Assembly: GCA_005656395.1 (NCBI GenBank)
Contig: SRSI01000046.1
Span: 806,001 to 870,000, forward strand
DNA: 64,000 bases
Source: Strongyloides papillosus
Taxonomy: Eukaryota > Nematoda > Chromadorea > Rhabditida > Strongyloididae
Direction of reading: 5' to 3'
Part shown: positions 44,330 to 64,000 of the stretch, piece by piece
Position numbering within the stretch: the first letter of the stretch is position 1
Layout: every line of letters starts with the position of its first letter
Made by a program: the position numbers and the translations under genes
The notes under the pieces: generated by a model
What the model saw: the letters and a program-made list of their open reading frames with translations, nothing else
Databases searched by the model: none
Told to the model about the DNA's origin: nothing

Positions 44330-47132
44330 AGGGTTCAGATACCTTTGGCGATCTCTTCATGTTAACAAAATTAACATTTGATAGTCAGACATATGCTTCA
44401 TTATGATTGTCCAAAAAAAAGAGAAAAAAAACTGTGTTGGAGTACTGCAAAAATAAATGTTCAAAAGACTTTCCGAAACCATTCGCTTCAGAAACCTTTA
44501 TTAATAATCTAACAGGAAGAGTTTTTTATCAAAGAAGGGACAATACCAATGATAAAATTACTCTTGGAAACGGGCGAACTATCAACAACAGTTTCGTAGT
44601 CCTCTATAATGTATTTTTATTAAAATACTTTAACGGGCACATCAATATTGAAATAGTAAACCAAGTACTGGCTGTCACATATCTTTTCAAGTATTTTGTC
44701 AAAGATGGTGAAACAAATAAGGTAAATATAGAAGTTCTATTCAAGGAAGAAAAGAAGGATGAAATTTGCGAGTTCCAGAAAATTAGATGCGTAGAACCAA
44801 CTGATGCAACATGGAGAATATTTGAATATCCTATTGTTGCTAATACTGTTACTGTTGAAGTTTTATATATACATTTGAAACCCAATGACAAAGAAAAATA
44901 TACAATTCCTTTAGAAGAAAACGACTTTTTTAATGCTCCGCATCTTCATAAAGATTCGGATGCATTAATGCATCTTCTAACAACCAAAACAGTTGGAAGG
45001 TCAAAATTAATGGCCTATTTTCAATTAATGGAAGAAGAATATAGTAAATCTAATCCTGATAATGAAATACAAGCATTGACTTATGAACTGATACCAACAT
45101 TATTCAAATGGGATCCTCTATATCCCAAAGATGATGAAAGTATTCCACGTCATCAAAAAGGTGCATGGATTAGAAGAGTTAGAAAAACAAAGGCTATTGG
45201 TAGAATAGTCAGAATAGCAAAAGCAAACAAAGAATTATTTGCAATGAGAACCCTTCTAATTCATAGGAAGGGAATCAAATCTTTCGTTGATCTAAGAACT
45301 ATTGATGGCATCCAGTTCTCAACTTTTGATGAAGCAGCCAAATATCTAAATTTAACAGATAAAGAAAATTTACAAAAAGAATACTTTGATGAATTAGGAA
45401 AAATTCTTACCTCTCGAGAGTTTATCAATGCATTTTCAATTTACATTTGTCAAGCACCTGAATTTAAAGAACATAAAAAAGTATTTGACATACATAAGGA
45501 TTATATGAATCAAATTTTTATTCAAAGATATAGAACAAGTAATGGCCAACCAGTATCTGAAATTTTAGCTATACAACAAGCAAACAGTCACTTACAATAC
45601 GAAATTTGCATCACATTAGGTGCTAATGGTTATGATATTAAAAAATCAAATCTTCCGTTTGGAACTATATTTTATCCAGATATAATTAACTACGATGGTG
45701 ATGATATTGAAGAAGATACAAGAGCACTTCAAAAATACATTGACAGTGCTACAAAATGTTCAAAAACAAGTCTTTGAGAATTTTAAAGCTATCCGTGCAT
45801 CAACTAGAGATAGCAAAATAATGATGATAGAAGGCCCCGCTGGAACAGGGAAAACATTCTTATATAACTTACTCGCTACATATTTAAGAACAGAGGGAAA
45901 GTACTATATCAATTTGTCAGGTACCGGTATAGCATCATCACTTCTATACCAGGGACAAACATGCCATTCACTATTCGAGATACCATTAAGTATAAATGAT
46001 CCTGGATATGATGTAAAAATGGAAAAAGTAAGAAGACTACCTGACACAGAAAGAATGAGAATAAAAAATGCAGAGGTGTGTTTCATTGATGAAGTATCAA
46101 TGTTAAGTGCAAAGCAATTAGACTACATTGATAAAGTCCTTCGATTACATGGTGGGAGACATAAACCTTTTGGAGGAAAATTCATCGTTATGGGACGAGA
46201 TTTCCGGCAATGTCTCCCAATAATTAAGGATGCCACTACAGCGCAGTTAGAGGCATCAACTATTCTTAAAACAAAAATATTCACACATGGTAATCAAGTA
46301 AAAAGGCAATACCTCACGGATAACATGAGGGCTGGAGAAAATGAAATTGACTTTGCAAGATTCCTGCTACAAATTGGAAATGGGCAAAAAATTAATGAGA
46401 CTGAATCATTTTCTCTGGATGGGAGAATGAACAGTAATAGATTAGTGACAATACCAAATGAAATGATATTTGAAGGCGATCTAGAAGGATTCATTGTTGA
46501 AATATTTGGATTAACAAAAGAAGATATATCAAACTACTTTAACAGGGCCATTTTAGCCCCAACAAATTCCTCAGTAATGGATATCAACATTTTGGTGCTT
46601 CAAAAGTAGTTTACTGATATTGATGTATTTTATTCAAATGATAAGTTATATTTCGAAAACGAAAAGAATCCTAGTAATTTTGACATATCAACTGAACTCC
46701 TAAACACATTTACACCTTCAGGATATCCTTTACACAAACTAAAAATTTCTAAAGGATGTGTCTCAAAATATAAACATTAAAGAAGGTCTTTACAATGTGG
46801 CAAAATTAATATATGAACAAGTTGTTTCAGTAAGTAATGGAGATGGCTGCAGGAAACTCTTTAAATACAAATCTCTTGATGGACAGAAAATGCATTATGT
46901 TTCCCAAGTGAAAAATAATCCAGTAGACCTGAAATGTCCTATACTTTTCACCAAGTATCAATTTCCAGTGAAACTGAGATATGCAATGACTATAAACAAG
47001 TCACAAGGACAAACATTTGAGAAGATGAGATTATTAATAGATAATACTAGGATATTTTCACATGGACAACTTTATGTGGCATTCAGTAGAGTTAAAACAC
47101 CTAACTCAGTTAAAATCCATTGGATCCATTAA
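44330..47132 (+). pseudogene. Decayed Helitron-type helicase (PIF1 family), Rep domain missing
   Basis: Three overlapping or adjacent frames make one damaged protein. Frame 1 (44407-45777, with traces back to about 44340 beyond an in-frame TGA) carries the Helitron linker region (KCSKDFPKPF, YQRRDN, HINIEIVNQ, YLFKYF). A frameshift near 45755 leads into the PIF1 helicase (45695-46609) with Walker A GPAGTGKT and Walker B CFIDEVSM. An in-frame TAG at 46607-46609 is followed by more helicase sequence, and a second frameshift near 46750 leads to 46758-47132, which has the final motifs MTINKSQGQT and SHGQLYVAFSRV. The HUH Rep nuclease that should precede frame 1 is not found; upstream sequence is AT-rich noncoding. 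It is therefore an inactive, 5'-truncated Helitron remnant. A cellular PIF1 is excluded by the Helitron-specific linker. Confidence 0.88.
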
Positions 47133-52478: not shown

Positions 52479-55047
52479 TTATGTATTATCATAGGTTGCA
52501 GATAGTGAAGGAATGACCTTCAATCTATCAGTGGTAATTCTTTCTTCTCTACCAGTGAGTCTACCAGTACGAGAACATTTTTGTATGATATATGTGTCCG
52601 CATGTAAATGCTTAATTATTTTACAAGGATCTTCAAATATATCTTGATTTTTATGTGATGTGTGATTTAACTTTTTATGTAACACACGTTTCATCACAAA
52701 CATGCTGGAGGAAAAACTTTTCGTTTTCTCTTAGGCTTTGATTCACTAAATTCGGTACGACCGAATTGTATAATATCTTTCAAACCACTAAGGGATGAAT
52801 TAATTGCAATCTCATCTGAAAATTTATCAGCAGTATTGAGAATAAAATAACAAGGTAGATAACCTGTTGAAGTATGCTTTGTACGATTATAAGCATATGT
52901 TAAAGCATATACAGCATCAGTATTGATAAATCAGATTGTGCTCTGATAACTTCGCGAATTGTACGATTGAATCGTTCAGCGAAAGCATTTGAAGTATGAT
53001 TATGTGGAGATGACACATAATGAGTAACATTAACAGATTTAAGATAATCTGATAATTTATTACCAATAAAGCCAGATCCTACATCTGTACGTAATACTTT
53101 GGGAAATCCAAAAGTGGAAAAGCACTTCATTAATTGTAGAAGTGTAGTATTTTGATCTTGTCGTTTGGTAACAGCAGTATACACAAAACGACTATATTCA
53201 TCTATTATCACTAATACGTGAAGATGATCTTCAAGCTGTATATAATCAGTATTTAAAGTTTCCCAAATACCTTCAGGTTTAGGGATGGATTTAGTATTGG
53301 TAGCTGCTAAATTAGAGGATTGGTGTTTCACTTTCCAACATACCTCACAGTCTTGCAAAATACGTTTCATGTCTTCAAGCATCTTAGGCCAGAAGAATAT
53401 AAGACAGAATTTATCTGCTAGTTTATCGAAACCAAAATGTTGTCCTATAGTAAGATAAGGTATCTTACAAATAAGACGTAACAATCAAAATACCAAAATA
53501 ACTAAACAGAGGTTGGTCGAGGTGTAATCAAAATTAGTATATTATTTAAGTTATATTTTATATCATGTGTTAAGAGTTAAATTATTAATAATTGTATCGT
53601 TTATGTTAATTAAGTTAAATGTTAAGTTAATTTAATTGTAATGTTTATATATTGTAGGCGTATAAACAATTAAATAAAATTTTAATCTATTAAAGGATGG
53701 CTACGGAATCGTCTCAACAACTCTTCCCTTAGCACCTAAGGAACAAAAACACGTCGTTTACCTCTGTAAAAGACATTGATATCACCATCTTAAATGACAT
53801 CTTTTTCATTAAGAAATTTATGAAATTTACTTATAACATATGGAGTATTCATTGGATTCTCCATTATAGGAAAAACGTCTTCAAAGAGACCTTCCCTCAG
53901 AAGAACGGCATTAAATTCCGTCCTACTAAGATAATCGGCAACATGATTATCTTCTCTTTTAAGATATACGATTGTAATATCGTATTCCATTATAGCCATC
54001 TGATATCGTTGAAGAATACCAGTCAACTCTTTATTTTTAAGTAAATCCAACAATGGCTTATAATCGGTAACTACCTTAGTATGTTTACCATAAATATATG
54101 GTCTAAATTGCCGTAAAGCATAGACAAGATCCAAAGCTTCCAATTTAATTATTGGATAATTTTTCTCTGCAGGTTTCAGAGATCTCGAAGCAAAGGCAAT
54201 TGGTTTATCCTTTTGCGTAAGAGCTGCACCTAAGCCTTGAAATGAAGCGTCGGTGTATATGGTATATGGCGCCGTATGGTCCGGAGGAGCCAATACTGCA
54301 GCATTTATTAGTGCCTGTTTTAAGGCTTGGAAAGCATCAGCTTGTTCTGATGTCCACGAATATGAGTTAATAACTCTATATAAAGGTTCAGCCAATGCTG
54401 AAAAATTTTTAATGTGCCTTCTAAAATAAGACACAGCCCCAAGAAAAGATTTAATCTCTTTTTCTGTTTTTGGTTCACGTTTATCCGTGATCGCCTTAAC
54501 CTTATCAGGGTTAGGATGGATACCATCAAAATCAATGATGTATCCTAAATATTGAGCATTTTTTTTGCCCAAATTGACACTTATTTAAAGTGATTTTCAT
54601 ATTATATTCTGCTATACGTGACAGAATATTATCAATATTGTGAATATGAGATTCCTCATCTTGAGAACAAGTGAGAATATCATCCAAGTAGATATAGCAA
54701 TCGGGTATGTTGCTAAGGACTTTGTCCATTATATCTTGAAGCTTATCTGGCGATCCAGTAAGTCCCATAGGCATTACCTTATATTGGTAAATTCCTCTAT
54801 GTGTAACAAAAGCAGCAATACGCCTGCTATGTTCATCAAGAGGTATTTGATGAAATCCTTGTTTCAAATCAAATACGCTGTAGTACTTATGACCACTAGC
54901 TTCTTCAGTCAATCTATCTATCCGTGGGATAAGATGTGACTGTTGTTTTATAAGCTTATTAATAGCTCTGAAATCGACGACAAAACGCCATTTCATGTCT
55001 TTCTTTCGTACTAATACGACTCTACACACAAAAACTAATAGTGACAA
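52479..55047 (-). pseudogene. Truncated Ty3/gypsy retrotransposon pol (RT-RNase H-integrase), multiply broken
   Basis: Read leftward: reverse transcriptase from about 55030 (FVVDFRAIN, FDLKQGFHQI, YLDDIL), a frameshift near 54565, then RNase H on 54572-53790. That RNase H keeps all four catalytic acids (TDAS, KLEAL, VTDYK, HVADYLSR). Next come stops at 53790-53792 and 53736-53738, a 242-bp insertion (53449-53690), and the integrase with its zinc-finger Cys pair (CEVC) and core (NTDYIQLEDH, LRTDVGSGF, AFAERFNRTIRE). A frameshift near 52915 follows, then a last frameshift near 52700 into the C-terminal tail ending at 52479. Gag, protease and the fingers of RT are absent because the homology stops abruptly at about 55030. 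No LTR pair was found. It is a dead element. Confidence 0.9.
53449..53690. mobile_element. 242-bp insertion within the pol pseudogene
   Basis: Pol homology stops in the integrase zinc-finger region at about 53691 and resumes at 53444 in mid-motif. The intervening bases are AT-rich and noncoding. CTAT occurs on both sides (53445-53448 and 53687-53690), fitting a 4-bp target duplication; counting one copy the insert is 238 bp plus CTAT. One end carries GTAAGAT-AAGGT-ATCTTAC, a perfect 7-bp hairpin (53450-53468). It has no GT-AG ends, so it is not an intron. The element family is unknown. Confidence 0.6.
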
Positions 55048-58663: not shown

Positions 58664-58757
58664 TGTTAGATGCTAATTTTAATTAAATATTCAAATTATT
58701 GTTTTATAAATAGCATCTTATTTTAAAATAAATTATGTCTCATGCAAAAATCTAACA
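58664..58757 (+). repeat. 5' LTR, 94 bp
   Basis: Differs from the 3' LTR at about five positions. It contains TATAAAT at 58705-58711 and AATAAA at 58727-58732, so the promoter and polyadenylation signal are packed within 30 bases. This is among the shortest LTRs expected for a Ty3/gypsy element. Confidence 0.93.
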
Positions 58758-58770
58758 TGGCGCCCCCGGC
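58758..58770 (+). other. Primer-binding site
   Basis: TGGCGCCCCCGGC starts with TGG immediately after the LTR, as expected for pairing with a tRNA 3' CCA end. The tRNA would need to end in CGGGGGCGCCA; its identity was not determined. Confidence 0.75.
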
Positions 58771-58823
58771 TTTAAAACCCTTCACGTCATGGTTTTGTAG
58801 AATATGCTCAACAACATCTTCGC

Positions 58824-59370
58824 ATGTATGTTCCAGAGGAACAGCATGTCCAGGTACTCATCAATGCATTACCAGAAGACATTAGAGAAGCTTTTGAAGA
58901 TCTTCGACCTGAAATCGGTGAAGAAGTGCAAACAATCTGCAATTTCTTGGATGAACTATTGAAGAGGAACCCAAGAAGGAAGTACTTGAAGAAGCGAGGA
59001 ACCAATTATACTCAATCACTTTCGGGCATACGGACCTGCGTCCATTACACTCATATATACAACGAACCTCTAAACTTATTGCTACACTTTTCGAACAAGA
59101 TTGCAATAGTGATTTGGTAGAGCAAATAGCTACGTTTCACTGTATTATGAGAATGCCAAAAAGGACCTGACAGCAGCGTTCTTCAAACATCTGGAGAAGG
59201 AGAAAGAAGTTCTTTGTAAAGAATCATTTCATAATTGGGCAACTCGCAACAAAACATCCATCCATCAACGTTTGGTCCCTGTCAAGGGTGATAAAGATAA
59301 AAATACGATTGTAGAAAAAAAAAGACACCCCAAAAATAATTGGCCTATCTCACTGGACAATTAAAGCTTT
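58824..59370 (+). pseudogene. Short gag-like region with two frameshifts
   Basis: The frame from the ATG at 58824 gives about 50 acidic, helical residues (INALPEDIREAFEDLRPE). Near 58975 coding character moves to another frame (up to about 59140), then to a third (about 59150-59360, LTAAFFKHLEKEKE). Total length of about 180 codons is short for gag, and no CCHC zinc knuckle is visible. A true gag is inferred from position only. Confidence 0.6.
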
Positions 59371-59398
59371 AATTGGCAATGTTAAACTTTCAACAACA

Positions 59399-61678
59399 AT
59401 GTACTTAGACTCGTGCAGCGGTTTCAATTATCTATCAATGAAATCATGGAAGGATCTTGGTGAACCAAGTCTTGACCTTCTAGATACTGTTGAGATCAAA
59501 GATGTTGGTGCAAATATAATATCATGCTTAGGTGCTTTAGTCATTCCTGTAGTCTTGGATAACATTGAACACACGTGTAAGTTCTATGTCTGGGAACATG
59601 AATGTGATATTATTGGCTTCGGTGATCTTAAGCGATTAGGGTTCATTGGTTGTGAGAGTATAGAAAAAAAATTAGAAAATTGTGCTCAAGTCCGCGTTCC
59701 AAAATTGTCCATGTCATTTGATGTTTCAGAAGATTTTAAACCTTGTGTTATGCCTTTCCGAAAACTTAAACTAAATGTACATGATCTGGTAAAGCAGCGA
59801 CTTGAAGAGGAATGTAAATTAGGTTATTTGAGGAAAATTCCATCAAAGCAAGTTTCAAACGCGAGTCCAATTGTGGTAGTTCCCAAAAGCAACGATGAAA
59901 TTCGCATATGTGGAGATTACACTCGAATCAACAAGTTTATTATCATTCCGGAAGCACAAGATAATATATCAATTAAGAATATTCTTCAACTCAGAAAGAA
60001 GAACGTTCGTTATCTTTCTTCTATTGACTTGAAGGATGCTTATAAGCAGTTCACAATTCATGGTAAAAATCGAGAATTAGCGACTATTAATACACCATTT
60101 GGTTTTTATGAACCACTGAGAGTTGTGTTTGGTATTGCTTCTGTGCCTGCGTTGTTCAATAATGCACTGGCTGATCTCATTGATCCTATACCAGATACAT
60201 ATAGGTACTTTGATGATATAGTAGTAATTAGTAAAACTGAATCTGGTCATAGAGCAGCGTTATCACAATTATTTCAAGTTTTGGAAGAAAACAACATTGT
60301 GTGCAATCGCCAAAAAAGTCAAATTATGGTGAACTCCATTGACTTTCTTGGTTTCTGTATCTCGTCTGATGGCACAATCCAAGCGTCAAACAAAATAAAA
60401 GGTTCGATTCTGGACAGTCCAACTGATTCAACCACTCTGCGTGGTGCCTTAGCAAAAATGTTCTATGCTAGATTGTTCATTCCCGATTTTGCCAAGTTAG
60501 CTAAATCACTGTATCCAAAGAAAAATAAAAAATTTTGTTGGACTGACTTGAAAGAAAAGCAATTTCAACAATTAGTGCAAGCCTATCATCAAGCACATTC
60601 ATTACATATGATTGAAGACAATATTAATACTTTATTTATTGACGTCGATCATGATAATGAATTTGTTGGTTTTGCTGTTTCTTGGATGAAAGGTGGCAAA
60701 CCGTTTTTATTATATTCCAACTCTCGTGTACTCCAAGGCTCTCAAAAACGTTATTCACTAGCTTTACGACTTCTGTTGGCAGTTTCAATAGCGGCGGAAG
60801 AATTAGAGAGTATCTTGTTGTATAATAACATCGTGGTATATACACCATCTGTTGATATTAAAAAAATGTTTGATTCCTTTGTTTCATTTGACGAATGTAT
60901 CAGTAATGATACCACATTTGTTCGTTTAATGGCCAAGCTTTCTCCTTTTCAGATCAAATGGGAAGTTAAGAAGAAGAATTCTAAGTCTATTTCAGATGTT
61001 CCACACTTCTTAATCGCTAGCAAAGATGCTGAATGTGAAACGATCCTTGACCCGAAGTTAATCATTGATGAATACAAAAATGATTATACGTATAAGGTTC
61101 TCAAGAATCAAGATAGAAAGAAATGGCCCATTTGTCTGCGAAAATTCAAAACTGTTCATGAAGATCAAGGCTTATTGTTTCTTGATCATCGTTTGTTTAT
61201 CCCTTCAACACTTCATAGTGAGCTGCTCTCTAAGCTCTACAGTCCCCATAGATCCTTACTTCACATGCGGCGTACGATTACAATGAAGTTCATTGTGGAA
61301 GGCTATACTAGAAAGACAGAGAAATTCTTGATCAATTGCAAAGAGTGTCAAACTGCTCAAAATAACCTGAATAAATTGATAAGCAGTCTGCCTAAGGCTA
61401 CGTTTTCATCTGAAAGAATCCATATTGATAATATGGTATATGGAAAATCAAAAATTTGTGTCATGTATGACAGTTTCAGCAGATTGACCAAAGCTTTCTT
61501 TATCAAGTCTTACGCATCAAAAGAAATGATAAAATGTGTAGAAAAATGGATAGAAGAAGTTGGTACTATCTCAATTTTAGTCAGCGACAATCACCGGCCT
61601 TTGATCTCCAGTGAATTTGATGATTGGTTGAAAGGTCATAATATCTATCACATTAGAAGCATTTCAATAGAAGTATAA
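59399..61678 (+). CDS. Pol: protease, RT, degenerate RNase H, integrase (5' part of pol)
   Basis: 759 codons. Protease: LDSCSGFN at 3-10, with Cys6 where the D-S/T-G triad has Gly. RT: PIVVVPKS (157-164), SIDLKDAYKQF (208-218) with Asp210, and catalytic YFDD at 270-273. RNase H region about 410-535: Asp415 and Asp533 fit the first and last acidic residues, but the Glu position is Leu458 (SLALRLLLAV) and the middle Asp position is Pro483 (VVYTPSV). Integrase: His617, His622, Cys647 and Cys650 form the zinc finger; Asp677 and Asp730 are the first two of D,D-35-E. The frame ends early at 61678; the expected SNG-x-x-E segment continues in another frame, so a frameshift near 61660 separates it from the next ORF. 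Confidence 0.92.
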   Translation: MYLDSCSGFNYLSMKSWKDLGEPSLDLLDTVEIKDVGANIISCLGALVIPVVLDNIEHTCKFYVWEHECDIIGFGDLKRLGFIGCESIEKKLENCAQVRVPKLSMSFDVSEDFKPCVMPFRKLKLNVHDLVKQRLEEECKLGYLRKIPSKQVSNASPIVVVPKSNDEIRICGDYTRINKFIIIPEAQDNISIKNILQLRKKNVRYLSSIDLKDAYKQFTIHGKNRELATINTPFGFYEPLRVVFGIASVPALFNNALADLIDPIPDTYRYFDDIVVISKTESGHRAALSQLFQVLEENNIVCNRQKSQIMVNSIDFLGFCISSDGTIQASNKIKGSILDSPTDSTTLRGALAKMFYARLFIPDFAKLAKSLYPKKNKKFCWTDLKEKQFQQLVQAYHQAHSLHMIEDNINTLFIDVDHDNEFVGFAVSWMKGGKPFLLYSNSRVLQGSQKRYSLALRLLLAVSIAAEELESILLYNNIVVYTPSVDIKKMFDSFVSFDECISNDTTFVRLMAKLSPFQIKWEVKKKNSKSISDVPHFLIASKDAECETILDPKLIIDEYKNDYTYKVLKNQDRKKWPICLRKFKTVHEDQGLLFLDHRLFIPSTLHSELLSKLYSPHRSLLHMRRTITMKFIVEGYTRKTEKFLINCKECQTAQNNLNKLISSLPKATFSSERIHIDNMVYGKSKICVMYDSFSRLTKAFFIKSYASKEMIKCVEKWIEEVGTISILVSDNHRPLISSEFDDWLKGHNIYHIRSISIEV

Positions 61679-61722
61679 GTAATGGGTCAGTTGAGAAAGG
61701 TATTCAATCTGTTCGACATGGT

Positions 61723-62748
61723 TTGAATCAACATTTATCACTAGCCCAAACCATTACAAAAATTAATTCTTCTATTGGTGCAGATAAGCTTACGAATTGT
61801 CAGCGTTTTGAAATGGGTAAAGCAAATGATACTTCAGTATCTCTCCATGACAAGTATACAGTCCAAGTTACAGCATTGAATGGTAGTGGTTGGTATAAAG
61901 TCAAATACGACGATGATGATTGGAAAGAATGTGAATTAGTATCTAAAATTGACCAAAGTTGTTTCAAAATCAAGGACGGAGAAACTTACCATATCAGAGC
62001 GAGTGATGCTGTGAAATTGTCAACTGTAAAAGTTTCAAGTGAATTCAAGGACCAACAATTGTGGAACATACATAATGATGAAGTTGTGAAAGAACCACAG
62101 GATCCACTTGAATCATCTGATGCAGAAAGTACAACTACTGCTGCTGCGCCGTTGAATGACGACAATGACCCAATAAACTACCTACCAGATAGATGTGTTA
62201 ACCAATCCGAGGTTGATGCAATTACTAAAGACTTCGTGGATGATTGGATTGTAGCATCAGATGCAGCTGAAGCTAACATCAACAACCACACAAGTAAAGG
62301 TTGGGCAATTGTTGCAACAAATGGTACTCAGGTAATAATTCAAGGTAAAAAAGTTCATGGTAACACGAGCACACAAAAATTGGAATTAGAAGCTGCCGTT
62401 AAAGGTCTGGAATTCCTTCGAGCTAATTCAAAAAAGGGTTTAATTTTAAGTGACAGCGGATTTGTATGCTCTTCTAGTCAGTGTAATTATGATGTAACAG
62501 CCTTTCCTGATCTCTGGAGCTCATTCAAAGAAAAAAAGGGAGAGACAAGAATTGTTCATGTAAGTGCCCACTCAAAAATAGTGTTAAATGAAATGGTTGA
62601 CTTGTTTGGAAAATGTTACGCTGCGGGAATAGTGGAAAAAGACATGGAATGGCCTTGTGATCTTAACACGGCAGTAATAAGATCTCAAGAGTTCAAAGAA
62701 TTACTTAATAAACTATTGAAAGATGATGCTGCGGATATCAAAAGTTAA
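61723..62748 (+). CDS. Integrase end plus second, complete RNase H domain (3' part of pol)
   Basis: 341 codons, open upstream from about 61660 where the frame carries the integrase motif SNGSVEKGIQ with the third catalytic acid; the first codon counted here is TTG. Residues 1-100 resemble the integrase C-terminal beta-barrel (GSGWYKVKYDDDDW). A Ser/Thr/Asp-rich linker spans 125-150. Residues 173-300 are an RNase HI fold: Asp180 (VASDAA), Glu221 (KLELEAA), Asp244 (LILSDSGFV), His283 and Asp293 (AHSKIVLNEMVD), the complete D-E-D-H-D set with the usual NE-x-x-D ending. This domain is extra, because an RNase H already follows RT. It ends 11 bases before the 3' LTR. Confidence 0.9.
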   Translation: MNQHLSLAQTITKINSSIGADKLTNCQRFEMGKANDTSVSLHDKYTVQVTALNGSGWYKVKYDDDDWKECELVSKIDQSCFKIKDGETYHIRASDAVKLSTVKVSSEFKDQQLWNIHNDEVVKEPQDPLESSDAESTTTAAAPLNDDNDPINYLPDRCVNQSEVDAITKDFVDDWIVASDAAEANINNHTSKGWAIVATNGTQVIIQGKKVHGNTSTQKLELEAAVKGLEFLRANSKKGLILSDSGFVCSSSQCNYDVTAFPDLWSSFKEKKGETRIVHVSAHSKIVLNEMVDLFGKCYAAGIVEKDMEWPCDLNTAVIRSQEFKELLNKLLKDDAADIKS

Positions 62749-62758
62749 AAAAAAGTGG
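62747..62758 (+). other. Polypurine tract
   Basis: AAAAAAAAGTGG, all purine but one, ends exactly at the first base of the 3' LTR, the expected site of plus-strand priming. Confidence 0.7.
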
Positions 62759-62852
62759 TGTTAGATGCTAATTTTAATTAAATATCAAAATTATTGTTTT
62801 ATAAATAGCATCATATTTTTTAATAAATTATGTCTCATGCAAAAATCTAACA
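62759..62852 (+). repeat. 3' LTR, 94 bp
   Basis: Same length and ends as the 5' copy; mismatches cluster at two places (TTCAAA/TCAAAA and CTTATTTTAAAA/CATATTTTTTAA). Confidence 0.93.
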
Positions 62853-63068
62853 CCTTAATAAGGAATTTTTTACCTAATAATAAATTTTCCTTAATAAAAA
62901 ATTTTCCTTAATAAAGAATTTTCCTTAATAAAGAATTTTCCTTAATAAGGAATTTTCCCTAATAAGGAATTTTTTACCTAATAATAAATTTTCCTTAATA
63001 AGGAATTTTTCTTAATAAGGAATTTTTCTTAATAAGGAATTTTTCTTAATAAGGAATTTTCCTTAATT
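62853..63068. repeat. Minisatellite of ~17-bp CCTTAATAAGGAATTTT units
   Basis: About 12 imperfect units start at the first base after the 3' LTR. A larger block containing TTTACCTAATAATAAATTTT occurs twice (near 62869 and 62967), so duplication occurred at two scales. CCTTAATAAGG is nearly self-complementary. Confidence 0.9.
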
Positions 63069-63594: not shown

Positions 63595-64000
63595 TTATAG
63601 GTAGTTGATATAATGCGTCAACTGCCGACAACTCCCCTCCAGAAAAAGAAGTTTTACATTTTTCTTTGTTCGTCTAGTTATATTGCCATTTGTTTCTTCT
63701 ATCTCTATGATACTATTACCTATTTGTCTAATTGCTTTTCCTTCTGACCATTCATTATTGAGATCTGGTCTTTGGCGATAGAAACAGAAGCGATCTAATT
63801 TTATAACTTTATCCTCTTTGATATTATCCACTTTACTCTCTAAACGGTATTCTAACATACGATCATAATCCCCTAGGAGTAATTGAAGCGGAGTCCATTT
63901 TTTATTTTCAATAATTTTGTATGGTGTCATTCTAGTTTTAGCCAAGGCCATCTGTAGAGCTGTCGTTTTGGGTACTTGTAAATGTTGGAGACGAGCGAGA
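63595..64000 (-). pseudogene. Retrotransposon integrase C-terminal fragment, runs off window
   Basis: The frame is open from the right edge (63999) to the stop at 63595, about 134 codons. TALQMALAKTRMTPYKI and TPLQLLLGD resemble the end of an integrase core. The rest, with VIKLDRFCFYRQRP, EGKAIRQIGNSIIEIE and a basic tail, fits the beta-barrel C terminus of Ty3/gypsy or BEL/Pao integrases. Without the core it cannot be assigned to a lineage. It may be the intact end of an element lying to the right. Confidence 0.75.

What the first reader, a model, noticed from the sequence alone, without database searches (positions are those of the whole stretch)
61723..62748. Second RNase H domain downstream of integrase in a Ty3/gypsy element
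The protein just before the 3' LTR contains a complete RNase HI-type active site (Asp180, Glu221, Asp244, His283, Asp293) although an RNase H region already follows RT. Dual RNase H is known from retroviruses and from some plant LTR elements (Tat lineage), where the new domain is next to the old one. A position after integrase, at the very C terminus of pol, in a nematode is not something I recall described. The new domain would allow RNA-primer removal and plus-strand priming independent of the RT-linked domain.
Basis: partly seen in the sequence, partly recalled or inferred. Interest (0 to 1): 0.88.

Follow-up and report, generated by a model that had tools for sequence, protein, structure and literature searches.

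The report
Second RNase H after retrotransposon integrase
A group of jumping genes in Strongyloides roundworms carries an extra RNA-cutting enzyme domain at the far end of its protein, behind the integrase, while the original one beside the copying enzyme has lost its active site: a step best known from the origin of retroviruses, found here in an unusual place.

Summary
Window 58664-62852 is a 4.2-kb LTR retrotransposon (94-nt LTRs, 95% identical) whose last coding part ends in a type I RNase H (62233-62637; PF00075 E=1.2e-8) with exactly the five residues named. The integrase frame is broken in this copy; a C14 copy carries RT, integrase and RNase H in one open frame. It is not one odd copy: of 28 element places read, 21 have integrase then RNase H in one frame, 6 the same order in broken frames, 1 no same-strand integrase. 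Annotated S. stercoralis and S. papillosus proteins share the order. D-E-D-D is complete in 18 of 18 C-terminal domains, but in 0 of 16 RT-linked ones, against 108 of 114 in ordinary relatives. RT and integrase trees each put these elements on one side of one branch; the RNase H tree is unresolved. Reading: one old gain of an RNase HI behind integrase, which took over catalysis while the native domain decayed. A new variant of the dual-RNase-H theme; biochemistry untested, donor unknown.

The parts
58664..58757 (+). 5' LTR, 94 nt, TGTTAG...CTAACA
   Evidence: (95% identical to the 3' LTR)
58758..58770 (+). primer-binding-site-like stretch TGGCGCCCCCGGC directly behind the 5' LTR
   Evidence: the same stretch follows the 5' LTR in L009 and L014; its 10-mer complement hit 6 places in the genome, none in a tRNA gene
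58824..59120 (+). gag-like remnant
   Evidence: same start as part of the 236-aa ORF upstream of pol in the open copy L009, compared by eye
59399..61678 (+). pol frame: protease-like DSC motif (by eye), RT, degenerate RNase H, integrase N-terminal and core parts; ends inside integrase
59963..60355 (+). reverse transcriptase core
   Evidence: PF00078 residues 189-319, E=5.6e-23
60539..60874 (+). RT-linked (native) RNase H, catalytic residues lost
   Evidence: PF17919 residues 381-479 E=2e-5 and PF17917 residues 412-492 E=4.5e-4, both under their curated cut-offs; catalytic columns
61193..61672 (+). integrase zinc-binding part and catalytic core (incomplete in this frame)
   Evidence: PF00665 E=1.2e-8 and PF17921 E=0.016
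61723..62748 (+). open frame with integrase C-terminal part, linker and RNase H
61849..62022 (+). integrase C-terminal domain-like stretch
   Evidence: by eye, against the open frames of the other copies
62233..62637 (+). acquired RNase H domain with D180, E221, D244, H283, D293
62747..62758 (+). polypurine tract AAAAAAAAGTGG directly before the 3' LTR
62759..62852 (+). 3' LTR, 94 nt

Best explanation
The window holds a decayed copy of one family in a group of Strongyloides LTR retrotransposons of Ty3/gypsy type whose Pol runs RT, native RNase H, integrase, RNase HI. An ancestor gained a histidine-type RNase HI of cellular kind behind the integrase. The gained domain kept its complete active site, while the RT-linked RNase H decayed into a non-catalytic, tether-like domain, as reported for retroviruses, Tat, Chronos/Archon and Odin elements. 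Shown here: domain order, residues, decay of the native domain, single-branch RT and integrase trees, LTRs, polypurine tract, 5-bp target-site duplications, identical LTRs in two copies. Inferred: the C-terminal domain degrades the copied RNA, makes the polypurine primer and removes primers during reverse transcription, either while fused to integrase or as a separate protein after proteolysis.
For: Order RT-integrase-RNase H in seven full-length frames of the genome (L009, L010, L011, L043-L046) and in P0121, P0124, P0126. Integrase upstream of RNase H in 27 of 28 places read. D-E-D-D in 18 of 18 C-terminal domains, His at the fourth site in 16. Native RNase H D-E-D-D in 0 of 16 against 108 of 114 ordinary relatives. 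RT tree: 16 rows one side of a branch, 97/97, 96% of bootstrap trees; integrase tree: 19 rows, 100/99. The domain is not a copy of the native gypsy RNase H: four native rows split off at 100/99. Family B copies on C13 and C59 have identical LTRs and 5-bp target-site duplications.
Against: No activity is shown. The RNase H tree does not resolve the element domains as one group (0% of 200 bootstrap trees), though one clade is not rejected (p=0.209). Two of 18 lack the histidine (C9, C3). Pairwise dN/dS among near copies was near or above 1 in three of six comparisons and uninformative in two saturated ones. Trees are unrooted with long branches, and hold no retroviral or Odin rows. The window copy is itself broken and has no target-site duplication.
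Confidence: 0.83

Rival explanations
1. A host RNase H gene or fragment was captured by, or happens to lie beside, this one copy and is not part of the element.
For: In the window the domain is in a separate frame from RT and integrase core; the host has its own RNase H1 (L017).
Against: 21 of 28 places read carry integrase and RNase H in one open frame; three annotated proteins of two other-named species entries do too; host RNase H1 groups with human RNase H1 and not with the element domains (97/92).
Confidence: 0.01
2. The C-terminal domain is a duplicate of the element's own RT-linked RNase H that moved behind integrase.
For: Both are RNase H folds; duplication needs no donor.
Against: Four native gypsy RNase H rows split from the element domains at 100/99; the element domains match RNase HI structures and carry the His of cellular RNase HI. 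The degenerate native domains of these same elements were not placed in that tree.
Confidence: 0.05
3. The domain is a working RNase H, but acts as part of integrase: it stays fused and makes the exact LTR ends by removing primers where integrase then acts, rather than serving bulk RNA degradation.
For: In 21 of 28 places it is in one frame with integrase; 85-210 residues lie between the integrase-core match and the domain in 18 proteins.
Against: Polyproteins of this kind are normally cut by protease (established knowledge), and no cleavage site was looked for. Loss of the native active site in 16 of 16 rows suggests that the domain took over the general job.
Confidence: 0.2
4. Both RNase H domains are active, or the C-terminal one serves another purpose (for instance a counter-measure against host RNA/DNA-hybrid sensing or small RNAs) and host RNase H does the reverse-transcription work.
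For: Host RNase H1 exists; non-LTR elements can rely on host RNase H (stated in PMC5348765, passages).
Against: 0 of 16 native domains have the four catalytic residues; LTR elements copy inside particles (established knowledge), where host RNase H is not expected.
Confidence: 0.08

Closest known systems
Retroviridae, lokiretroviruses, Odin elements (dual RNase H with tether)
   Same: A second RNase H with an intact active site; the RT-linked one has lost its catalytic residues (PMC9040795, passages). Histidine-type domain.
   Different: There the new domain follows the tether directly, before integrase; here it lies behind integrase. Common descent was not tested: no such rows were in the trees.
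Plant Tat elements (additional archaeal-like RNase H, structures #1-#5)
   Same: Ty3/gypsy type; extra RNase H; native domain decays whatever the position of the extra one (PMC10508981, whole text).
   Different: [quoted passage not shown] P0135 (celery) has it between RT and integrase. The Tat domain is of archaeal type.
Oomycete Chronos and Archon
   Same: Ty3/gypsy type, dual RNase H, native catalytic residues lost (PMC5348765, passages).
   Different: Archaeal-type domain in the retrovirus-like place; Chronos has a chromodomain, not an RNase H, behind integrase.
Chromoviruses
   Same: An extra domain fixed behind integrase at the end of pol (PMC12440569, passages).
   Different: The extra domain is a chromodomain, not a nuclease.
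Plant and oomycete L1 and Utopia elements with RNase H
   Same: RNase H at the C terminus of a retroelement polyprotein (PMC5348765, passages, says so for the L1 elements).
   Different: Non-LTR elements without LTRs or DDE integrase.

Membership tests
Ty3/gypsy LTR retrotransposon | LTRs with TG...CA ends, primer-binding site, polypurine tract | tested here: met
   (a matching tRNA was not found)
Ty3/gypsy LTR retrotransposon | Order RT, RNase H, integrase in pol | tested here: met
Ty3/gypsy LTR retrotransposon | 4-6 bp target-site duplication | tested here: met
   5 bp exact in L010, L011 and L014, 4 of 5 in L009; none in the window copy
Ty3/gypsy LTR retrotransposon | RT nested among Ty3/gypsy | tested here: inconclusive
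   separate from 32 ordinary rows by one branch, unrooted, no BEL/Pao or retroviral outgroup
Ty3/gypsy LTR retrotransposon | GPY/F motif behind the integrase core | tested here: not met
   0 of 18; but only 23 of 110 other proteins (P0002 among them) have it by a stricter pattern, so it is a weak criterion here
Retrovirus-like dual RNase H | Additional RNase H with complete active site | tested here: met
   D-E-D-D in 18 of 18
Retrovirus-like dual RNase H | Native RNase H catalytically degenerate | tested here: met
   0 of 16 complete, against 108 of 114
Retrovirus-like dual RNase H | Additional domain directly behind the native one, before integrase | tested here: not met
   behind integrase in 27 of 27 places with a same-strand integrase
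Retrovirus | env gene behind pol | tested here: not met
   no room: pol ends 10 nt before the 3' LTR in the window and about 30 nt before it in L011; env elsewhere was not searched
Tat/Chronos/Archon-type archaeal-like RNase H | Arg at the fourth active-site position | tested here: not met
   H in 16, D in 1, K in 1 of 18
RNase HI (type I, PF00075) | D-E-D-H-D active site and RNase H fold | tested here: met
   residues; profile; the fold itself not shown (AlphaFold model too poor)
RNase HI (type I, PF00075) | Cleavage of RNA in RNA/DNA hybrids | not testable with these tools
   needs an assay

The most novel reading that the evidence does not exclude
In these elements the catalytic RNase H works as part of the integrase: it stays attached in the particle and makes the exact LTR ends, removing the tRNA and polypurine primers, where integrase then acts, while RT keeps only a tether. 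Polymerase and RNase H would sit on different proteins and the last RNA-removal step would be coupled to integration, unlike any LTR element or retrovirus that I know of.
Probability: 0.22. Interest if true: 0.88.

Novelty: new variant of a known kind. Interest (0 to 1): 0.72.

Why it matters
Gain of a second RNase H with decay of the first is counted as a hallmark step from LTR retrotransposons to retroviruses (PMC10508981). Here it appears in nematodes, with a histidine-type RNase HI, at the far end of pol behind integrase, in many families of one group, some of them recently mobile. It extends to a new position the Tat result that the native domain decays wherever the new one sits, which fits loss of redundancy rather than neighbourhood as the cause. 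It also makes a clean question testable: can the RNase H of a reverse-transcribing element act from the integrase side?

Tried and rejected
Single-copy capture of a host gene: rejected by open frames elsewhere. Duplicate of the native RNase H: disfavoured. Protein-database search with the integrase C-terminal plus RNase H region of family B: 1755 candidates, none at E<=0.01; RT-region searches from two other families then found Strongyloides relatives. AlphaFold model of the window ORF with 5 sequences: mean pLDDT 36, not used. tRNA for the primer-binding site: a 10-mer hit 6 places, no tRNA gene in any of the 6. dN/dS: not informative. First integrase tree: by mistake I had labelled the window element's own integrase as ordinary, which gave 2 changes; one search leaves that row out. 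Ribosomal RNA search for the host was unanswered and not repeated, so the species is not fixed: nearest annotated proteins are 93% (S. papillosus, P0001) and 96% over 59% of the query (S. venezuelensis, P0123). Papers: the ten counted searches listed, and the passages I read showed, no LTR element with an RNase H behind integrase. Most subscription papers are not held, nor is the 2015 MBE paper on Tat; Repbase could not be searched. Figures were not seen.

Full report
WHAT IS THERE. The finding sits at the end of a 4.2-kb LTR retrotransposon, window 58664-62852. The LTRs are 94 nt, 95% identical, start TGTTAG and end CTAACA, with TGGCGCCCCCGGC behind the 5' LTR and AAAAAAAAGTGG before the 3' LTR. 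The pol frame 59399-61678 holds RT (PF00078, E=5.6e-23), a weak RT-linked RNase H (PF17919 2e-5 and PF17917 4.5e-4, both under their cut-offs) and integrase (PF00665, 1.2e-8). It stops inside integrase. The frame 61723-62748 begins with the rest of integrase and ends with RNase H (PF00075, 1.2e-8, residues 186-295). An ordinary gypsy RNase H in the same window (53793-54572, minus strand) scores 6.4e-35 and 1.3e-29 with the two RT-RNase H models.

IS IT REAL. The window sequence alone was too divergent to match a solved structure (best E=0.34).

NOT ONE ODD COPY. The genome (58.2 Mb, 79 contigs) has 55 PF00075 matches, all over the cut-off. One, L017, looks like the host's own RNase H1 (2qk9 at 1.5e-25). 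I read 26 of the other 54, and two family-A places that are not in that table: 28 in all. In 21, integrase and behind it RNase H lie in one open frame. In 6 (the window, C50:187954, C24, C27, C19:987698, C5:2088429) the same order lies in broken frames. In 1 (C8) no integrase was found on the strand of the RNase H; one lies about 4 kb away on the other strand. The 28 places not read may differ. Seven full-length frames show RT, integrase, RNase H in that order (L009, L010, L011, L043-L046). The copy on C14 carries the window's own family open (1145-aa frame). Copies on C13 and C59 have identical LTRs and 5-bp target-site duplications, so they inserted recently.

OTHER SPECIES. The host is a nematode: 66 matches to the cuticle-collagen N-terminal family, 0 of 14 control genomes (that the family is nematode-specific is recalled). 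Searches with RT regions found relatives annotated in S. papillosus (P0001, 93% identical to family A; P0126), S. stercoralis (P0002, P0121, P0122, P0124, P0125) and S. venezuelensis (P0123, P0127). P0121, P0124 and P0126 are single proteins with RT, integrase and RNase H in that order; P0127 has integrase and then part of the RNase H. P0002 ends, as annotated, before the domain; P0001 has RT and RNase H but no integrase hit in its gene model. Of 115 retrieved proteins with RT and integrase, 5 have such an RNase H: P0121, P0124, P0126, P0127, and P0135 from celery, where it lies between RT and integrase, as in plant Tat elements. The searches were capped (120 of 138 and 18 of 18 proteins listed) and biased to relatives of two families.

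THE NATIVE RNASE H HAS DECAYED. At the four catalytic columns of the RT-linked RNase H, 108 of 114 ordinary relatives with letters at all four read D-E-D-D; 0 of 16 rows of these elements do. The 16 are 12 genome pieces (two of the window's family) and P0002, P0121, P0124, P0126. The second D is gone in 15 of 15 rows with a letter there; E is kept in 4 of 15, the first D in 8 of 16, the last D in 6 of 14. Three pieces (C1, C28a, C7) are cut short near the end, and the alignment of the first D is unsure in family A. Nine Strongyloides proteins were kept out of the ordinary set beforehand; 9 of its 123 aligned rows lacked a letter at some column. The C-terminal domain reads D-E-D-D in 18 of 18, with His in 16 (C9 has D, C3 has K).

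ONE GAIN. With RT columns only (300 columns, 48 rows), the 16 rows form one side of a branch, 97/97, in 96% of 200 bootstrap trees. With integrase (222 columns, 43 rows), 19 rows do so at 100/99. The RNase H tree (27 rows, 149 columns) splits four native gypsy RNases H from the rest at 100/99 and groups the four cellular ones at 97/95, but leaves the 18 element domains unresolved: 2 changes, one group in 0% of bootstrap trees; one clade is not rejected (p=0.209). So a single gain rests on RT, integrase and the shared position, and the donor is open. The domain is mostly of histidine type. The trees are unrooted, have long branches and hold no retroviral or Odin rows. dN/dS was not informative: near copies gave 0.27 to 3.1, and two distant pairs were saturated at silent sites; one integrase pair gave 0.16.

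HOW IT PROBABLY WORKS. A Ty3-type element needs RNase H to degrade copied RNA, leave the polypurine primer and remove primers (established knowledge). The RT-linked domain has lost its active site and the C-terminal one has not, so the latter very likely does these jobs (inferred). Whether it acts fused to integrase or free after proteolysis is unknown; 85-210 residues, the integrase C-terminal part included, separate the two matches in 18 proteins. In Ty3 and CaMV a second RT molecule supplies RNase H (passages of PMC11363490), so action from another protein is plausible.

COMPARISON AND NOVELTY. Dual RNase H with decay of the native domain is described for retroviruses, lokiretroviruses and Odin (PMC9040795, passages), plant Tat (PMC10508981, whole text) and oomycete Chronos/Archon (PMC5348765, passages). 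The Tat paper lists five arrangements, none behind integrase, and reports decay of the native domain whatever the position; the present elements extend this to another position and another phylum. Ten paper searches (named in Tried and rejected) showed no such element. A paper on S. ratti small RNAs speaks of LTR gypsy targets, and the passages I saw give no domain detail (PMC9203780). Passages were also seen of PMC8775202, PMC9289625, PMC13195028 and PMC12440569; none describes it. Subscription papers and Repbase were out of reach, so it may be catalogued as plain gypsy.

VERDICT. New variant of a known kind; well supported by sequence, untested at the bench.

Noticed in passing
window 52903-55047 (-): An ordinary Ty3/gypsy element in broken frames, with an intact-looking RT-linked RNase H (D-E-D-D) and integrase; ordinary and dual-RNase-H elements share the genome.
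   Followed up: partly
window 62853-63067: Tandem array of a 17-bp unit CCTTAATAAGGAATTTT, 12.4 copies, starting directly at the outer end of the 3' LTR; the copy has no target-site duplication.
   Followed up: partly
window 63595-63999 (-): Open frame that resembles an integrase C-terminal part of another element (by eye).
   Followed up: no
window 44407-46609 (+): Two ORFs, the second with a GPAGTGKT Walker motif, look like a Helitron/Pif1-type helicase (by eye).
   Followed up: no
L045 (C9 family) and L046 (C3 family), C-terminal RNase H: The fourth active-site position is D and K instead of H by the alignment, in otherwise open 1524- and 1497-aa frames.
   Followed up: no
L009, L011, L018, L021, L022, L027, L028, L031, L033, L034, L036, L043-L046, P0121, P0124, P0126: No GPY/F-like triplet between integrase core and RNase H in these 18.
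   Followed up: partly
L017 (G000:C22:758436-758807): Exon of the host's probable own RNase H1, PDB 2qk9 at 1.5e-25.
   Followed up: partly
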